A DNA stretch of 49,559 nt. It comes from an uncultured Bacteroidales bacterium. GTDB lineage: Bacteria > Bacteroidota > Bacteroidia > Bacteroidales > UBA932. The translations under genes were made by a program, and so were the position numbers. Every line of letters begins with the position of its first letter. Position 1 is the stretch's first letter. The stretch covers positions 1 through 49,559 of the forward strand of contig CASFSL010000020.1 of NCBI GenBank assembly GCA_949297365.1. The letters run 5' to 3'. The notes under the pieces were generated by a model. The model did no database searches, was not told the origin of the DNA, and was given only the letters and a program-made list of their open reading frames with translations. Of this stretch, positions 14,687 to 48,723 are shown in pieces.

Positions 14687-14694
14687 AAAAGAAG

Positions 14695-14768
14695 TGGAGC
14701 ATACCGGAGTCGAACCGGTTACCTCGACACTGCCAGTGTCGCGCTCTAGCCAAATGAGCTAATGCCCC
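14695..14768 (-). tRNA. tRNA-Ala (anticodon GGC)
   Basis: The minus strand folds into a complete 74-nt cloverleaf: acceptor GGGGCAT/ATGCTCC with discriminator A, D-arm GCTC/GAGC, anticodon stem CGACA/TGTCG with loop CTGGCAG, 5-base variable region, T-arm ACCGG/CCGGT with TTCGACT. The anticodon is GGC (Ala). The acceptor contains the G3-U70 wobble that specifies alanine. CCA is not encoded. A run of six T follows on the minus strand. Confidence 0.95.
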
Positions 14769-26154: not shown

Positions 26155-29100
26155 TTACAATTTCTGTATGAGGTTATAAGCACCTTCGATAGTTTTCACA
26201 TTTTTCACCGTTATGTACAGCTTGTCATTGTTCTCCTTAAGCATGTACCTGGACGGATCCCGGTGCTGGATATTCTTGATGATATCCGAGAATCTGCTGC
26301 TGCGGTAGAACGGAGACATGGAGTTGGAGATAAAATACATCACCATCGCACCATTCTTGAGCACTATCTTCTCGAATCCTCTCTCACGGGCGGCCATCCT
26401 GAGCCGAACCACGAATATGAGCTGCTTGAACTCCTCCGGTATGGGACCGAAACGGTCCTCTATATCGGCGATGAAACGCTGCAGCGAGGCCTCGTCCGAG
26501 ATGGAGTCAAGTTCCTTGTAGAGCCTGATCTTCTCCGCCGTTATATTAATATAGGTATCGGGTATCAGTATCTCCAGGTCTGTATCCACAACACAGTCTG
26601 TCACATAGGTCTGGTCTTCCTCCTTCATGCCCGGCAGGTCCGGTACTGTGCCCTTGATCTCCTCAAAGGCCTCGGCCAGGATGCGCTGGTAGGTCTCGAA
26701 GCCCATCTCGGCGATATATCCGCTCTGCTCGGCACCCAGCATATTGCCCATACCGCGGATATCCAGGTCACGCATCGCTATGTTGAATCCGCTGCCAAGG
26801 TCAGAGAAAGCCTCTATGGCATCCAGCCTGCGTTTCGCGTCATCCGAAAGGCTGGTCATCGGAGGCACTATCAGATAGCAGTAGGCCTTGCGGCTGGACC
26901 GCCCTACCCTGCCACGCAGCTGATGCAGGTCGCTCAGACCGTAGTTCTGAGCCTGGTTGATGATTATCGTATTGGTATTCGGAATGTCTATTCCGTTCTC
27001 TATGATGGTGGTGGCTATCAGCACGTCATAGTCTCCGGACATATATTCGATAATCTTGTTCTCCAGTTCCTTCGGCTCCATCTGACCGTGAGCCACGCAG
27101 GTCTTGATGCCTGGCACTATCCTGCGGATGATATCCTCCACCTCGTAGATGTCCTGTACCCGGTTGTGCACGAAGAATACCTGTCCTCCCCTTCCGGTCT
27201 CCTCGTTGATGATATCCCGGATAGTGTCCTCGTTGAAGTCTATGATCTCCGTCTGTATCGGAAGCCGGTTGGGCGGAGGAGTGTTGATGATCGAAAGATC
27301 CCTGGCACCGAGCAGGGAGAACTGAAGTGTCCTGGGTATAGGAGTAGCCGTCAGTGTCAGAGTATCTACCGACAGCTTCAGACGCCGCAGGGCTTCCTTG
27401 GCCGCCACTCCGAACTTCTGCTCCTCGTCGATAATCAGCAGACCCAGATCCTTGAAGGCAATGCTCTTGCCCAAAAGCCTGTGAGTACCTATTATGATGT
27501 CTATCTTACCGTTTTTGAGTCTCTCCGTTATGTCCGCCACTTCCTTGGCAGTCCTCAGACGGCTCAGATAGTCGATCGTACACGGGAAATTACGCAGCCG
27601 GTCCCGGAAAGTATTGTAGTGCTGCAGGGCCAGAATGGTGGTCGGCACCAGCACGGCGACCTGCTTGTTGTCGGCCACGGCCTTGAAAGCCGCCCTCATG
27701 GCCACCTCGGTCTTACCGAATCCCACGTCGCCGCATACCAGACGGTCCATCGGGCAGTCGCTCTCCATGTCTTTCTTCACAGCCTCTACAGCCTTTATCT
27801 GGTCCGGGGTCTCCTCGTACTGGAACGAGGACTCGAACTCCTGCTGCAGAAATGAATCCGCACTGAAAGCGAAACCCTTTGCCACTCTGCGCTGCGAATA
27901 AAGCCGTATAAGGTCCTCGGCTATGTCCTTGACCTTGGACTTCGCGCTGCTCTTGAGCTTCTCCCAGTTGCCCGTACCGAGCTTATTGATCTTGGGAGGC
28001 TTGGTTGAGTCTCCGGAACGGTACTTGGATATGCGGTGCAGCCCGTGTACCGACACGAACAGCACATCATTGTCCCTGTAGATAAGCTTTATGGCCTCCT
28101 GCACCTTACCGTTGATACGGTTCTTGACCAGACCGCCGAAACGTCCTATACCGTGGTCGATATGGACGATATAGTCTCCTTCTTTGAACGAGTTGATATC
28201 GTTCATCGTCAGTCTCTCGCTTCTCTCGACTGTCCTCTTCAGCCTTATACGGCGGTAACGGTCGAATATCTGATGGTCGGTATACAGGCATATCTTAGAG
28301 TCATGGTCTATGAATCCTTCCTGTATCGTGTACTCCATATACTTGAGACTCAGATCAAAAGACGAGAAGATATTGCGCAGACGTTCTATCTGACTGCGGT
28401 TCTCGCTCATGATGTACACTTCATAGCCGTCACTTCTGCGGGACTTTATATCGGAAGCCAGAAGCTCGAAATTCTTGTTGAAAGTCGGCTGTGGAGACGT
28501 GTTGAAGTCTATCTCCACATCCGCTTCAGGCTTGTGCAGAGGAGAAAGGTACACTCTCTTATGCCTTGAATCTCCGTCCTCGGTAAAGTTCTCCACACCC
28601 GAAATCCATATCACTGAATTATCGGGAAGAACACTGTATATGGAACAGAAATCATCATTTCCGTCAGCCTTGGTCGAAGTGATGTTGGGATAGACATTCA
28701 GCACTTCCAGCTCATCTCCCGCAGTATGCTGGGTGTTGACATCGAACATACGGATCGAATCCACCTCGTCCCCGAAGAAATCCAAACGGTACGGCTTGTC
28801 ATTGTTGTAAGAGAAAAGGTCTATGATACCTCCTCTGACAGCATACTCGCCAGGTCTAGATACAAAATCAACTCTGGTAAAACCGAGTCCGTACAGATCA
28901 TCCTGCAGTTTCTCAAACAAAACCGTAGTTCCTTTTACTATCCTAAGCACTGCCGTAGACAGCTCTTTCTGACTGGGAACGTACTCGTCAAACGCATCCT
29001 TATAGCCGGCTATTATCAGAAAGTCACCATTGTACGTCCCTTCCCTGTAATCGGCGAGGGCACTTATTGCAGCAGTACGCTGTACCTTGGCCGACATATC

Positions 29101-29382
29101 CTTCATCGTCCCCTTGACGGTCCTGACATCGGAAGTAGGGAAAAAATAAACATTGCCGTCACCTATTATATTATACAGGTCATTGACACAGGCAGCGGCC
29201 TCGTCCTTTCCCTGGAGCACTACCAGATGGACTCCGCTCTCTACAGTATCAGATATCGCAAAAGCCTTGGCTGACGAATACAACCCATTGACATTAACCG
29301 ACTTAATACTCTTATCCTGTAAAGATTTACGGAGCAGTCCGACACTCTCGCTTTTCAACAATCCTTCTATTTTACGGTTCAT
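26155..29382 (-). CDS. mfd: Transcription-repair coupling factor
   Basis: 1075 residues (E. coli Mfd 1148). An N-terminal UvrB-like region includes DFVSRPGEYAVRGGIIDLF. The CarD-like RNA-polymerase-interacting domain is at about 395-460 (EGDYIVHIDHGIGRFGGL). RecG-like helicase motifs follow: P-loop GDVGFGKTE (551-559), the Walker B variant IIDEEQKFG, TATPIPRTL, and QLRGRVGRS. The C-terminal TRCF domain contains RLYKELDSISDE and FGPIPEEF. It displaces stalled RNA polymerase and recruits nucleotide-excision repair. It is divergent from ruvB across an AT-rich gap and probably heads the coaX-OMP-TPR-lptC-ppiD run. Confidence 0.97.
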   Translation of the reverse strand: MNRKIEGLLKSESVGLLRKSLQDKSIKSVNVNGLYSSAKAFAISDTVESGVHLVVLQGKDEAAACVNDLYNIIGDGNVYFFPTSDVRTVKGTMKDMSAKVQRTAAISALADYREGTYNGDFLIIAGYKDAFDEYVPSQKELSTAVLRIVKGTTVLFEKLQDDLYGLGFTRVDFVSRPGEYAVRGGIIDLFSYNNDKPYRLDFFGDEVDSIRMFDVNTQHTAGDELEVLNVYPNITSTKADGNDDFCSIYSVLPDNSVIWISGVENFTEDGDSRHKRVYLSPLHKPEADVEIDFNTSPQPTFNKNFELLASDIKSRRSDGYEVYIMSENRSQIERLRNIFSSFDLSLKYMEYTIQEGFIDHDSKICLYTDHQIFDRYRRIRLKRTVERSERLTMNDINSFKEGDYIVHIDHGIGRFGGLVKNRINGKVQEAIKLIYRDNDVLFVSVHGLHRISKYRSGDSTKPPKINKLGTGNWEKLKSSAKSKVKDIAEDLIRLYSQRRVAKGFAFSADSFLQQEFESSFQYEETPDQIKAVEAVKKDMESDCPMDRLVCGDVGFGKTEVAMRAAFKAVADNKQVAVLVPTTILALQHYNTFRDRLRNFPCTIDYLSRLRTAKEVADITERLKNGKIDIIIGTHRLLGKSIAFKDLGLLIIDEEQKFGVAAKEALRRLKLSVDTLTLTATPIPRTLQFSLLGARDLSIINTPPPNRLPIQTEIIDFNEDTIRDIINEETGRGGQVFFVHNRVQDIYEVEDIIRRIVPGIKTCVAHGQMEPKELENKIIEYMSGDYDVLIATTIIENGIDIPNTNTIIINQAQNYGLSDLHQLRGRVGRSSRKAYCYLIVPPMTSLSDDAKRRLDAIEAFSDLGSGFNIAMRDLDIRGMGNMLGAEQSGYIAEMGFETYQRILAEAFEEIKGTVPDLPGMKEEDQTYVTDCVVDTDLEILIPDTYINITAEKIRLYKELDSISDEASLQRFIADIEDRFGPIPEEFKQLIFVVRLRMAARERGFEKIVLKNGAMVMYFISNSMSPFYRSSRFSDIIKNIQHRDPSRYMLKENNDKLYITVKNVKTIEGAYNLIQKL

Positions 29383-29659
29383 TTCCTATTGATAACCCTG
29401 TTAATATCTTATGACAAATTTTTTTCTGTTTTTGAAAACATTGTATAATGAACAATTTTTATCAAAATGCTAAAATTTTTTATCAACAACTTTTCATCAC
29501 AGCTTTTTCACATAACAAAAATACCAAGTTTTATTAAAATTACTGATTTTATGAGCGGTTTTTCAAAACTTCGAACATCATTACAGATTTTGTCAACATA
29601 TTGACAAGCATAAAACATAATCAAGAAATTTTTAAAAAACTATATCTATATTTGTATTT
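29383..29659. other. AT-rich divergent intergenic region between mfd and ruvB
   Basis: 277 bp, the longest gene-free stretch of the window and visibly its most AT-rich part, with many runs of A and T. It contains TTTTTCACA (a TTWTNCACA-type DnaA-box match), TTATCAACA (one base from TTATCCACA), and a TATTTTTG on the minus strand that could serve mfd from a distance. The ruvB promoter is at its right end. Whether it is a promoter region only or something more is discussed in the findings. Confidence 0.5.
29647..29654 (+). promoter_or_regulatory. -7 element (TATATTTG) of ruvB; probably leaderless
   Basis: TATATTTG matches TAnnTTTG and ends only 5 bases before ATG 29660, so transcription should start at or next to the start codon. 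No clear -33 TTTG. Confidence 0.55.
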
Positions 29660-30703
29660 ATGTTTACGAGCGGTATGAATAACGGTGATTTTGATGCCAG
29701 GACGCAAAGTGCCGTCAAAGATAGCGATTTTGAAGGAAAGATCAGGCCACAGGACTTCGGAGAGTTTTCCGGCCAGGACAAGATCATCGAGAATCTGAAG
29801 ATTTTCGTAAAGGCCGCCCTGCTCAGGGGAGAGGCCCTGGATCATATTCTTCTGCACGGGCCTCCGGGACTGGGAAAGACCACTCTTGCTCATATAGTAG
29901 CCAATGAGCTGGGAGTCAACATGAAGATAACCTCAGGCCCGATACTGGACAAGCCGGGGGACCTGGCCGGTCTGCTGACTGGACTGGAGACCGGGGACGT
30001 GCTGTTCATAGACGAGATTCACCGTCTGTCGCATGTAGTGGAGGAATATCTGTATTCGGCCATGGAGGACTTCACTATCGACATCATGATAGACAAGGGT
30101 CCCGGTGCGCGTTCCGTGCAGATAGGTCTCAATCATTTTACCCTTATCGGAGCCACTACCCGCAGCGGCCTTATTACCTCTCCGCTCAGGGCCAGATTCG
30201 GCATAACCGCCCATCTGGAGTATTACGATGCTCCGGTATTGAAGAATATTATCAGGCGCAGTGCCTCCATCCTTAACATAGAGATAGAGGACAGGGCCGC
30301 TATGGAGATAGCGATGCGCAGCCGCGGTACACCCCGTATAGCCAATTCGCTTTTGCGCAGGGTCAGGGATTTCGCGCAGGTCAAGGGCTCCGGTTTCATC
30401 GATCTGGAGATAGCCTCCTATGCCCTCGACGCACTGAATATCGACAAGCGCGGACTGGACTCTATAGACAATAAGATACTCAATACCATTATCTACAAGT
30501 TCAAGGGCGGCCCTGTGGGACTGGGTACGATAGCTACTGCCATAGGTGAGGATCCCGGTACTGTGGAAGAGGTGTATGAGCCTTATCTGATAAAAGAAGG
30601 TTTTATCCACCGTACTCCCCGCGGACGTGAGGCCACTGACCTGGCCTATCAGCATCTCGGTGTGGATAAATATGCTCCTGACAGTTTATTCAATACGTTA
30701 TGA
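29660..30703 (+). CDS. ruvB: Holliday junction branch-migration ATPase RuvB
   Basis: 347 residues. [20 protein letters not shown] is the family N-terminus, GPPGLGKTT (67-75) is Walker A, and [16 protein letters not shown] is Walker [21 protein letters not shown] is sensor 1/arginine-finger region, and [20 protein letters not shown] the winged-helix end. It forms the hexameric motor working with RuvA on Holliday junctions; ruvA lies 15 kb away in this window on the opposite strand. Its stop overlaps the start of the glycosyltransferase by 4 bases. Confidence 0.97.
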
Positions 30704-39859: not shown

Positions 39860-40354
39860 ATGATAAGATTTGAAGTCATAGACGCGACCTTCAATTTGCG
39901 CCACAAAAATGCAATTAAAAATTGGATTAAGGAAATCATTTTGAGCAAAAATCGCAGAGTAGGGGATATCAACTATATTTTCTCAAACGATGAATATGTC
40001 CTCGAGGTCAACCGTAAATATCTTGGCCACGATTACTATACCGACATAATAACGTTTGATACTTCTGAATATGATGAGCAAATAACAGATAACAAGGTAG
40101 ATACAATCTCTGCCGATATCATAATCAGTCTGGATACGGTAGCGGCGAATGCAGTCACTTACGGTGCGGACTTTCCGCAGGAGCTTTACCGCGTCATAAT
40201 ACACGGCATCCTGCATCTGGTTGGGTATGATGACTTGAATGAGGCGGACTCCTGCAGGATGCGCAAGGCCGAGGATGAGACGCTGGCTCTTCTTCCCAAG
40301 TTTGGTATCCTCGGTGATCAGGTTTATATTTGCCGCGCAAAATCCCAAAGTTAA
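39860..40354 (+). CDS. ybeY: Endoribonuclease YbeY (16S rRNA maturation)
   Basis: 164 residues. The metal site is HGILHLVGYDDLNEAD. In E. coli the motif is HGxLHLxGYDH, and here the third ligand position is Asp; this is usual in Bacteroidota. INYIFSNDEYVLEVNRKYLG is the conserved N-terminal substrate groove. It acts in rRNA processing and ribosome quality control. Its stop shares one base with the mnmG start (TAATG), so the two are coupled. Confidence 0.93.
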   Translation: MIRFEVIDATFNLRHKNAIKNWIKEIILSKNRRVGDINYIFSNDEYVLEVNRKYLGHDYYTDIITFDTSEYDEQITDNKVDTISADIIISLDTVAANAVTYGADFPQELYRVIIHGILHLVGYDDLNEADSCRMRKAEDETLALLPKFGILGDQVYICRAKSQS

Positions 40355-42327
40355 TGGACTTCAGGTACGATGTCATAGTAATAGGTGCCGGTCATGCCGG
40401 ATGTGAGGCCGCATCGGCTGCAGCGAGGCTGGGTGTCAAAGTGCTTCTTATCACGATGGACATGAACAAGATTGCCCAGATGTCCTGTAATCCTTCCATT
40501 GGCGGAATAGCTAAAGGTCAGATTGTCAGAGAGATAGATGCTCTGGGGGGGGTTTCAGGAATAGTCACTGACGCTTCTACGCTTCAGTTTCGGATGCTTA
40601 ACCGCTCCAAGGGCCCTGCTATGTGGAGTCCCAGAGCTCAGTGCGACCGTATGGCCTTTTCCATGAACTGGCGCTGGATACTGGAGAATACGCCCAATCT
40701 TGTTTTCTGGCAGGATACCGTTACACATTTCAATTTCTCGCCTTCCGGAGATATAGATTCTCTCGAGACTTCGCTGGGAGGTCATTTTTCAGCGTCGTAT
40801 TATATCCTGACAGCAGGTACTTTTCTCAATGGCAGAATCTTCGTCGGTGACAGGACTACCGAGGGGGGCAGGGTAGCGGAGCCGTCGTCGTATTTCGTCT
40901 CCCGGCAGTTGTGCGAGCGGGGTATAGCAACCGCCAGGATGAAGACAGGTACGCCTCCCCGCGTGGATATCCGCTCAGTCAATACTGCTGAGTTGATCCT
41001 GCAACAGGGAGATGAGAGGCCGGAAAAATTCTCATTCCTGCCCTATCTTTCCTCTGCGCAGCGTTCGGACATTCCCCAAATGGATTGCTATATCGCCCAT
41101 ACCAATGCGACTGTGCATGATATTCTGCGGTCGGCTTTTGATAAGTCGCCCCTGTTCTCAGGCAAGATAACCGGTATCGGGCCGCGCTACTGTCCGAGTA
41201 TCGAGGACAAATTGCGGACATTCGCTGATAAGGACTCACATCAGATATTCCTGGAGCCCGAAGGACGCAATTCGACTGAGTATTATCTGCAGGGCTTCTC
41301 TTCATCGCTCCCTTTTGAGACTCAGATAAACGCTTTGGTGCATGTGCCTGGTTTTGAGCACGTTCATTTGTTGCGTCCTGCTTATGCCATTGAATACGAC
41401 TATTTTGATCCTGTGCAGTTAGACCACACGCTACGTTCCCGCGTAGTGTCCAATCTTTTCCTCGCAGGTCAAGTCAACGGTACGACCGGTTATGAAGAGG
41501 CCGGCGCACAAGGTATCATAGCCGGCATCAATGCTGCGCTCCGTGTTAAGACAGGTCAGGAGTTTACTTTGTCGCGTGATACTTCCTACATCGGAGTCCT
41601 CATAGACGATTTGGTGACTAAAGGTGTGGATGAGCCTTACAGGATGTTTACATCCCGTGCCGAATATCGGATTCTCTTGCGTCAAGACAACACTGATGAG
41701 CGGCTGACGCCACTCTCACATCAGATAGGCTTGGCTTCCGATTACAGGATGAGGGTTCTGGAGTTAAAGAGGAAGATTAAGACGCGGATAAATTCTGCTC
41801 TTTCATCAACTCGGCCTACACTTGATGACCTTAACACCTATTTAGGTACAATCGGATCATCTCCGCTTTCTTCTACTAGACCGTTACTTGATTTAATATC
41901 GCGCCCTGGTGTAACGATAAGTGATTTGTATCGATTTGTTCCACGTGGAACAAAGACGTCTATCACGAAGCGCTCTTATGTATCTACGCAAGAAATATCA
42001 TCAAGTTTACGTGCTGCTCTTCCCGATTATTTCAAAATACTTTTTTCTGACAAATATTGCCTATTAAACGAATCGCTTGATTCGTGTGAGATTGAATTAA
42101 AGTATAGAGGCTATATTGACCGCGAGATTCTGCAGGCGCAAAAACTCAAGCGACTGGAGAACCTCTCTATTCCTGAGGATTTTGATTATGCGTCTTTGGA
42201 GTCGTTGTCAATAGAAGCTCGTATGAAGCTGACTAAGCACAGACCGCGCAATATTGCTGAAGCTTCCCGAATACCGGGTGTCTCACCGTCTGATATATCA
42301 GTTCTCTTGGTTTACTTCGGCCGTTGA
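40354..42327 (+). CDS. mnmG: tRNA uridine-5-carboxymethylaminomethyl modification enzyme MnmG
   Basis: 657 residues, slightly longer than the usual 620-630. FAD binding is in VIVIGAGHAGCEAASAAARL, and MSCNPSIGGIAKGQIVREID, FRMLNRSKGPAMWSPRAQCD and GYEEAGAQGIIAGINAAL are family hallmarks. With MnmE it modifies the wobble uridine of several tRNAs. ATG 40354 is chosen over 40330 because it begins the conserved DFRYDVIVIGAG and is coupled to ybeY. From about 41.7 kb to the stop the coding sequence is clearly more AT-rich than before. A parS-like palindrome at 41937-41952 is embedded in the frame and encodes part of FVPRGT. Confidence 0.95.
   Translation: MDFRYDVIVIGAGHAGCEAASAAARLGVKVLLITMDMNKIAQMSCNPSIGGIAKGQIVREIDALGGVSGIVTDASTLQFRMLNRSKGPAMWSPRAQCDRMAFSMNWRWILENTPNLVFWQDTVTHFNFSPSGDIDSLETSLGGHFSASYYILTAGTFLNGRIFVGDRTTEGGRVAEPSSYFVSRQLCERGIATARMKTGTPPRVDIRSVNTAELILQQGDERPEKFSFLPYLSSAQRSDIPQMDCYIAHTNATVHDILRSAFDKSPLFSGKITGIGPRYCPSIEDKLRTFADKDSHQIFLEPEGRNSTEYYLQGFSSSLPFETQINALVHVPGFEHVHLLRPAYAIEYDYFDPVQLDHTLRSRVVSNLFLAGQVNGTTGYEEAGAQGIIAGINAALRVKTGQEFTLSRDTSYIGVLIDDLVTKGVDEPYRMFTSRAEYRILLRQDNTDERLTPLSHQIGLASDYRMRVLELKRKIKTRINSALSSTRPTLDDLNTYLGTIGSSPLSSTRPLLDLISRPGVTISDLYRFVPRGTKTSITKRSYVSTQEISSSLRAALPDYFKILFSDKYCLLNESLDSCEIELKYRGYIDREILQAQKLKRLENLSIPEDFDYASLESLSIEARMKLTKHRPRNIAEASRIPGVSPSDISVLLVYFGR
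41937..41952. other. parS-like site 1 (inside mnmG)
   Basis: TGTTCCACGTGGAACA, a perfect 16-bp palindrome, extended here to a perfect 20-bp palindrome (41935-41954, TTTGTTCCACGTGGAACAAA). It matches the bacterial parS consensus bound by ParB. Confidence 0.8.
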
Positions 42328-42333
42328 ATGTGT

Positions 42334-42349
42334 TGTTCCACGTGGAACA
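42334..42349. other. parS-like site 2 (mnmG/GNAT convergent gap)
   Basis: The same 16-bp palindrome TGTTCCACGTGGAACA, 397 bp after site 1. It occupies nearly the whole 22-bp gap between the mnmG stop (42325-42327) and the GNAT stop (42350-42352). Confidence 0.8.
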
Positions 42350-43171
42350 TTATTCCATTGTGAATGTAAATAGCGGGTGCTTTCTTGAAAAGAGATCCAG
42401 TCTTGTCTTGCATAGCATATGCGCTTCCTTTTCGTTTCCTGCTGGAGTAGTGATAATAGCTGTGCTGGAGTTCGGATAGATGCCTTTAATCCAGTAGGGG
42501 GTTAGAGAAGAACCGCTGTCCGTGGCTTCTCCGTGCTCTTCACAGATAATAGTTCCGTTGTTCTCTGGATCAGGATAACAGATTACATAACCTTCTCCAT
42601 AGTTTATTGCAAATGCTTTGCCGTTGCAGTATTCGGTATATGAGAGCTGGTATCCGCACATATTCCGACTTGATTCAAACAGCAGGCCGTCGCGGCACTG
42701 TCTGGCTCTGGCCGTATATAGTGTCTGGTCGGAAAGGGGCTCCAGAATGATTTCCGGGGGAATTAATGGCAAGGTTACTTTTTTGACACTACGATATAAA
42801 GTCGTATCATAGCCCTGTTGCCTATAGTACTCAAATAAGGAATGTGAGGCTGGCCTTAGTATCATAAAGTCCAGATCTTTGTCAAGTAACTGCTCCTCTG
42901 CATGTCTCAGCAAGGACACTGCGTGTCTATGTCCGCGATGTTCAGGGTGAGAGCAGACACCGTAAACATATCCTCCTCTGTGTCCTGCATATTTGACAGG
43001 AAATATGCTCAAGGCAGAGACGATGCCATCCCCTGTCTCCATCACGTATGTCCTGGTCAGTCCGTATCCCTTCCCAAAAAACAGGTCTAGAAATGCCCTG
43101 TCTGCATCAAAACACTTTCTCCAAAGCGTCCTTAACTCCGGAACATCATCATCGTTGGAAAGCCTGAACAT
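42350..43171 (-). CDS. GNAT-family N-acetyltransferase
   Basis: 273 residues. The N-terminal GNAT domain is clear: VPELRTLWRKCFDADRAFLD, then the acetyl-CoA loop in YVYGVCSHPEHRGHRHAVSL and the LFEYYRQQGYDTT end of motif B. The C-terminal 130 residues are less conserved and may form a second, degenerate GNAT or lipid-carrier-like domain, as in Eis-type proteins. The acceptor substrate is unknown. The start codon overlaps the stop of the acyl-CoA ligase by one base, so the two are co-translated. Confidence 0.85.
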   Translation of the reverse strand: MFRLSNDDDVPELRTLWRKCFDADRAFLDLFFGKGYGLTRTYVMETGDGIVSALSIFPVKYAGHRGGYVYGVCSHPEHRGHRHAVSLLRHAEEQLLDKDLDFMILRPASHSLFEYYRQQGYDTTLYRSVKKVTLPLIPPEIILEPLSDQTLYTARARQCRDGLLFESSRNMCGYQLSYTEYCNGKAFAINYGEGYVICYPDPENNGTIICEEHGEATDSGSSLTPYWIKGIYPNSSTAIITTPAGNEKEAHMLCKTRLDLFSRKHPLFTFTME

Positions 43172-48589: not shown

Positions 48590-48713
48590 GGGACCTGTCA
48601 GGCGGCTGTTCGATGTCATCTTCTACATGGTGCGCTACGTGGCATCAGCTCATTTGGCTGGAGCGCGACACTGGCAGTGTCGAGGTTAATCGGTTCGACT
48701 CCGGTATGCTCCA
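48590..48713 (+). pseudogene. Relic: SNF-transporter 3' fragment fused to a damaged tRNA-Ala
   Basis: Bases 48600-48644 read RRLFDVIFYMVRYVA, matching the C-terminal segment of the symporter at 14844-16172 (RRLYDVIFYMVRYVA). At 48639-48713 a tRNA-Ala(GGC)-like sequence follows directly. Its anticodon arm CGACA-CTGGCAG-TGTCG is intact, but there is a U2-C71 mismatch, C at position 8, a 6-base variable region and a weakened T-stem. In the intact locus (minus strand, 14.7-14.9 kb) the two are separated by about 120 bp that are missing here. It is not likely to be a working tRNA. Confidence 0.75.
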
Positions 48714-48723
48714 CAAAGGTGCC

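What the first reader, a model, noticed from the sequence alone, without database searches (positions are those of the whole stretch)
41937..42349. Two identical parS-type palindromes at mnmG suggest an origin-proximal centromere region
TGTTCCACGTGGAACA occurs exactly twice, at 41937-41952 within mnmG (in a perfect 20-bp palindrome) and at 42334-42349, filling the mnmG/GNAT gap. I saw no other copy in the window. A given 16-bp sequence is expected by chance about once per several billion bases. The sequence matches the known ParB-binding parS consensus. In many bacteria mnmG (gidA) and parS cluster near oriC, so this places the window near the origin. Site 1 also constrains the protein: it encodes part of FVPRGT in a region where the gene otherwise becomes AT-rich.
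Basis: partly seen in the sequence, partly recalled or inferred. Interest (0 to 1): 0.78.

Follow-up and report, generated by a model that had tools for sequence, protein, structure and literature searches.

The report
Chromosome centromere sites at mnmG gene
Two identical 16-letter palindromes at the end of the mnmG gene look like the bacterium's chromosome-sorting sites (parS); close relatives keep one of them inside the gene's coding sequence, and the likely start of DNA replication lies about 12 kb away.

Summary
In detail: TGTTCCACGTGGAACA occurs twice, inside mnmG and in the mnmG/GNAT gap, and nowhere else in the 2.28-Mb draft genome at up to 2 mismatches. The parS reading is strongly supported: a ParA-ParB pair with parS-type DNA-reading residues is present; in 41 of 59 genomes of the order with a hit, 71 of 72 hits lie within 2 kb of mnmG; 71 of 80 named mnmG loci have a parS within 350 bp. 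The coding copy is held at DNA level: third codon positions 0.959 identical against 0.468 at 133 comparable columns. In complete relatives mnmG/parS lies 0.5-4.5% of the genome from the fitted skew origin in four of five, 12.7% in the fifth; dnaA is far. New here: the 277-bp mfd-ruvB gap (29383-29659), 12.3 kb from parS, is a good oriC candidate. In one relative that avoids ACGT, both parS copies lost ACGT by the same change. parS is a known kind; its phylum-wide anchoring to mnmG was not found in the papers searched, but the standard survey was not held. Binding and initiation are untested.

The parts
41937..41952 (.). parS copy 1, inside mnmG (codons GTT CCA CGT GGA ACA = VPRGT; the palindrome begins at a third codon position)
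41935..41954 (.). perfect 20-bp palindrome around copy 1
42334..42349 (.). parS copy 2, in the 22-bp gap between the convergent mnmG and GNAT-like genes
40354..42327 (+). mnmG (gidA), TIGR00136 757.5 bits, over its cut-off; an upstream TTG start at 40330 is also open
42350..43171 (-). GNAT-like acetyltransferase gene, convergent with mnmG (its one NCBIfam match is below the cut-off)
29383..29659 (.). candidate oriC: 277-bp, 22% GC gap between divergent mfd and ruvB; cumulative GC-skew minimum of the window at 29646
29480..29488 (+). DnaA-box-like TTATCAACA
29590..29598 (+). DnaA-box-like TTGTCAACA; the aligned place reads TTATCAACA in 9 of 15 genomes by my reading of the alignment
26155..29382 (-). 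mfd
29660..30703 (+). ruvB

Best explanation
The two palindromes are the chromosomal parS sites of a Bacteroidales bacterium. ParB, encoded after a ParA-like gene on another contig, is expected to load on them as a CTP clamp, spread over the mnmG region, and let ParA pull the newly copied origin regions apart. They are origin-proximal: replication most likely starts in the AT-rich mfd-ruvB gap about 12.3 kb away. In the window's family one parS has come to lie inside the mnmG coding sequence and is held there by selection on DNA, which imposes VPRGT on the protein. Shown by sequence: the sites, their copy number, conservation at mnmG, DNA-level constraint, closeness to the skew switch in relatives, ParB type. 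Inferred from known ParABS biology: binding, clamp loading, segregation. Inferred from composition and motifs: oriC.
For: Only 2 copies in the draft genome. One ParB gene, directly after a ParA-like gene; best solved relatives are Caulobacter ParB 6t1f and other ParB/Spo0J, with Noc chains further down the same list; R173 and G201 equivalents present (positions from PMC7383237, passages). 71 of 72 hits at 1 mismatch, in 41 of 59 genomes (own included), lie within 2 kb of mnmG (tally); reversed-pattern control 1 hit. Of 14 no-match genomes of other families, 9 carry sites of the TGTTTCACGTGAAACA kind at mnmG. 71 of 80 named loci have a site within 350 bp of mnmG: 118 hits in 205,780 bp near against 16 in 783,464 bp far; reversed pattern 0. 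Coding copy: third positions at the five codons 0.959 identical against a mean of 0.468 and a maximum of 0.85 at 133 other conserved four-fold columns, 20 of 22 aligned genomes (18 genomes, 0.955 against 0.476 at 144 columns). Distance of mnmG/parS from the fitted skew origin 0.5, 0.8, 3.4, 4.5 and 12.7% of the genome (combined P 0.0007).
Against: No binding or segregation data for this organism. The skew fit is coarse (20 samples of 20 kb per genome, R2 0.47-0.90) and G186 fits 0.55 Mb from mnmG, though its AT skew switches near mnmG. 9 of 80 named loci lack a site within 350 bp; 6 of these 9 genomes were scanned whole: 5 have none at 1 mismatch, one has two sites elsewhere. G113 has a 1-mismatch palindrome but no ParB was found; ParB was found in 27 of 29 family genomes. 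G035 has mnmG with 286 bp after it and no site. The draft may lack further copies. The structure model places VPRGT in an ordered helix junction, so some protein role is not excluded.
Confidence: 0.92

Rival explanations
1. The palindrome is an operator or bidirectional terminator of mnmG and its neighbour, not a centromere site.
For: One copy is a palindrome between two convergent genes.
Against: The other copy is inside a coding sequence; no run of T follows copy 2; no promoter is expected between convergent genes; sites lie upstream, inside or downstream of mnmG in different genomes; the sequence fits the ParB consensus.
Confidence: 0.03
2. The inner copy is conserved because VPRGT matters to MnmG, and the DNA match is a by-product.
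For: VPRGT stands out as conserved in a variable region and is modelled as ordered.
Against: Synonymous positions are frozen there and at none of 133 comparable columns; G023, G024, G025 and G026, without the inner site, lack VPRGT at that place; G030 has the same palindrome in the same phase at a different place in mnmG.
Confidence: 0.03
3. The sites are Noc-binding sites (NBS) and the ParB-like protein is Noc.
For: NCBIfam's Noc model matches the protein, below its cut-off; Noc chains are among the solved relatives.
Against: The protein has R and G, not Q and R, at the two deciding residues, and the sites carry the parS bases at the two positions that separate parS from NBS (the NBS sequence itself is recalled). 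The gene follows a ParA-like gene.
Confidence: 0.02
4. The skew minimum in the mfd-ruvB gap reflects divergent transcription, and oriC lies elsewhere near mnmG.
For: mfd and ruvB are divergent and most family stretches were cut 2-4 kb beyond the gap, which favours a minimum there. In other families ruvB is about 60 kb, 0.2 Mb and 1.1 Mb from mnmG (G144, G227, G200), and G186, with ruvB 11 kb from mnmG, shows no such minimum.
Against: In the uncut 49.6-kb window the minimum is also in the gap. The whole-genome fit in complete family member G027 puts the origin at 0.01 Mb, next to this gap at 16 kb. DnaA-box-like TTATC[AC]ACA: 18 in 4,274 bp of gaps, in 13 of 15 genomes, against 9 in 313,613 bp elsewhere; shuffled gaps 0.2. 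Complete family member G021 agrees.
Confidence: 0.25

Closest known systems
Chromosomal ParABS with origin-proximal parS (Bacillus subtilis Spo0J, Caulobacter crescentus ParB)
   Same: 16-bp palindrome, few copies, near the origin, ParA-ParB gene pair, ParB with parS-type specificity residues.
   Different: parS is anchored to mnmG, not to parAB (55 kb to 1.7 Mb away in five complete relatives) or dnaA; no SMC of family TIGR02168 over the cut-off in 7 of 7 genomes, against 10 of 14 control genomes (MukB and MksB families not searched). A parS inside a coding sequence is recalled for B. subtilis spo0J, so that feature alone is not new (recalled, no call).
Bacteroidota origins away from dnaA (Prevotella intermedia, PMC4755523; Bacteroides caecimuris and Muribaculum, PMC10197239; passages read)
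   Same: Origin at a skew switch, away from dnaA, with DnaA boxes (P. intermedia) or parS clusters (PMC10197239); no known condensin found in the two Bacteroidetes of PMC10197239.
   Different: Neither main text contains the words mnmG or gidA.

Membership tests
parS centromere site | 16-bp palindrome matching the ParB consensus | tested here: met
   against TGTTTCACGTGAAACA, the consensus quoted in PMC10197239 with 2 mismatches allowed, the site has 2, placed symmetrically
parS centromere site | few copies, clustered near the replication origin | tested here: met
   tested on complete relatives, one of five fits loosely; not testable directly on the draft
parS centromere site | cognate ParB with R173 and G201 | tested here: met
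   the residue tags printed used a wrong offset and were re-read from its alignment rows
parS centromere site | bound by ParB | not testable with these tools
   needs ChIP-seq or a binding assay
ParABS system | ParA ATPase gene next to parB | tested here: met
   255-aa ParA-like protein directly upstream of ParB; its listed NCBIfam matches are below their curated cut-offs
Noc / NBS | Q173 and R201 residues | tested here: not met
oriC | skew minimum, AT-rich stretch, DnaA boxes | tested here: met
   the exact form TTATNCACA is absent from this window's gap, the motif there is TTATCAACA; box type not confirmed for this DnaA
oriC | replication starts there | not testable with these tools
   needs marker frequency or origin mapping

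The most novel reading that the evidence does not exclude
mnmG is the ancestral, fixed centromere locus of Bacteroidota: parS sites persist there by position, turning over between upstream, inside and downstream of the gene, after dnaA and parAB have moved away, in cells without a recognised SMC, so ParB at mnmG must work with ParA alone or with an unknown loader. Restriction avoidance can rewrite these centromeres, as in G006 where both copies lost ACGT by the same change.
Probability: 0.3. Interest if true: 0.7.

Novelty: new member of a known kind. Interest (0 to 1): 0.5.

Why it matters
It gives a sequence-only marker for the origin region of Bacteroidota drafts, where dnaA misleads, and names a short candidate oriC. 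It also makes two open questions testable: what keeps parS clustered at one place over long times, and what ParB-parS does in a phylum without a recognised condensin.

Tried and rejected
Exact DnaA boxes TTATNCACA in the window: one match, chance level and not in the gap; the relaxed motif was then chosen after seeing the alignment of gaps, so part of its enrichment comes from that choice (looser forms: 76-fold and 20-fold). A ParB residue change as cause of altered central bases in G006, G021, G027 and G029: no consistent change seen in the helix-turn-helix rows. Restriction avoidance explains G006 only: G021, G027 and G029 are not so depleted in ACGT. Guess that VPRGT lies in a disordered loop: not supported, block mean pLDDT 92-93 at residues 531-550. 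mfd-ruvB gap as oriC of the whole order: not supported. Paper searches for parS with Bacteroidetes, gidA, mnmG, Bacteroidota or Flavobacterium and for Bacteroides oriC with ruvB: listings seen, only the top rows where more papers matched (12 of 204); no listed title or abstract start reports the link. Livny 2007, the standard parS survey, is not held, so it may already list it.

Full report
Check. TGTTCCACGTGGAACA occurs at 41937-41952 and 42334-42349, with no other match in the window at up to 3 mismatches and none elsewhere in the own draft genome at up to 2. Copy 1 is in mnmG, within a perfect 20-bp palindrome; copy 2 takes 16 of the 22 bases between two convergent genes.

Partners. The genome has one match to the ParB_N family, directly after a ParA-like gene on another contig. 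Its best solved relatives are chromosomal ParBs; Noc chains follow in the list. Aligned with Caulobacter ParB it has R and G at the two residues that PMC7383237 (passages) gives as fixed in ParB and changed in Noc. The rows are, whose printed residue tags used a wrong offset; I re-read the rows by the motif positions in the paper.

Spread in the order. Of 59 genomes (own included), 41 have a hit at 1 mismatch, 72 sites in all; the reversed pattern gave 1. By my tally, 71 of 72 lie within 2 kb of mnmG; the exception is one of two sites in G055. The 18 genomes without a hit were checked for mnmG: three of the own genus have no mnmG in the assembly; the contig of one family member (G025) ends inside mnmG, near its 3' end; of 14 in other families, 9 have TGTTTCACGTGAAACA-like sites at mnmG, 3 have no mnmG over the cut-off, one contig is cut inside mnmG (G050), and one (G035) has no site in the 286 bp left after mnmG.

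Spread in the phylum. 71 of 80 have a site within 350 bp of mnmG, 25 on both sides, 2 inside. Of the 9 without, 6 genomes were scanned whole: 5 have no site at 1 mismatch, one has two elsewhere. B. fragilis has one about 12 bp past the end of its MnmG match and a second about 10 kb further. In ten near-complete genomes of ten families every genome has one or two sites; in the eight whose mnmG place was listed all lie beside it; G113 and G165 were not placed, and no ParB was found in G113.

The inner copy. All 16 own-genus genomes that hold this part of mnmG, and 11 of 16 other family members, carry the palindrome (up to 2 mismatches) in the same reading phase in this region. G030 has one elsewhere in the gene; G023, G024, G025 and G026 have none inside. 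VPRGT (VPCGT in one) aligns in the same five columns in 20 of 22 aligned genomes; the two others are G024 and G026. On those 20, third positions at the five codons are 0.959 identical, against a mean of 0.468 and a maximum of 0.85 at 133 other conserved four-fold columns. A first run used 18, because I had taken an insertion just before the site in G022 and G032 for a misalignment; it gave 0.955 against 0.476. L041, the named locus with the highest MnmG identity (63%), has VPQGT over a palindrome with a changed centre; L033 (59%) has no such site inside.

Origin. Five single-contig relatives from five families were sampled (20 stretches of 20 kb each). The fitted skew origin lies 0.5, 0.8, 4.5, 3.4 and 12.7% of the genome from mnmG/parS in G027, G200, G227, G144 and G186; dnaA is 25-50% away from it. 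Fisher's combined P is 0.0007 for mnmG, 0.96 for dnaA, 0.17 for parB. That oriC in Bacteroidetes is commonly far from dnaA is already stated in PMC4755523 (passages).

oriC candidate. The window's cumulative skew minimum is at 29646, inside the mfd-ruvB gap, which holds its most AT-rich stretch. Of 22 family stretches examined (window, 20, L127), 15 hold the divergent pair; in 15 of 15 the local skew minimum lies inside the gap, whose GC is 0.18-0.30. The other seven: in G005 and G026 ruvB is near the end of the stretch, in G032 the two genes are not divergent, and in G022, G024, G028 and G031 neither was found in the stretch. TTATC[AC]ACA occurs 18 times in 4,274 bp of gaps, in 13 of 15 genomes, and 9 times in 313,613 bp elsewhere. 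G021, complete, agrees; G186, of another family, does not. Divergent transcription and the short flank beyond the gap could help to give a local minimum, so I put this reading at about 0.75.

Mechanism. By known ParABS biology (PMC7333895, passages) ParB loads at parS, spreads, and ParA separates sister origins; SMC is recruited by ParB in many bacteria. No SMC of TIGR02168 passed the cut-off in 7 of 7 genomes, against 10 of 14 controls, in line with PMC10197239, which found no condensin in its two Bacteroidetes (passages). SMC loading is therefore the least certain step here.

Side result. In G006 both have the same change, which removes ACGT, and ACGT is at 0.17 of expectation there (7 against 40.6; 0 against 5.6 on its parB contig). 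Of 27 family genomes counted, the only other one below 0.5 is G004, with 0 against 1.8 in 2 kb. This looks like restriction avoidance reaching the centromere; the enzyme was not looked for.

Noticed in passing
L247 (G006) and L280: ACGT strongly avoided, and both parS copies lost ACGT by the same base change; suggests an ACGT restriction system, gene not looked for.
   Followed up: partly
L263 (G022), L262 (G032), L265 (G031), L264 (G024): Other strong tetramer avoidance: CATG 1 against 52 expected, 6 against 54, 18 against 84; GGCC 3 against 46.
   Followed up: no
parS sites of G021 (L229), G027 (L127), G029 (L233): Both copies in each genome have changes at the A or T of the central ACGT without strong genome-wide ACGT avoidance; unexplained.
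   Followed up: partly
G003, G007, G009: Three genus members have no mnmG in their assemblies; the origin region may assemble poorly.
   Followed up: no
G113: Small genome (1.2 Mb, 5 contigs) with one parS-like palindrome at 1 mismatch but no ParB match.
   Followed up: no
window 14694-14768 and 48639-48714: Two tRNA-Ala(ggc) genes on opposite strands.
   Followed up: no
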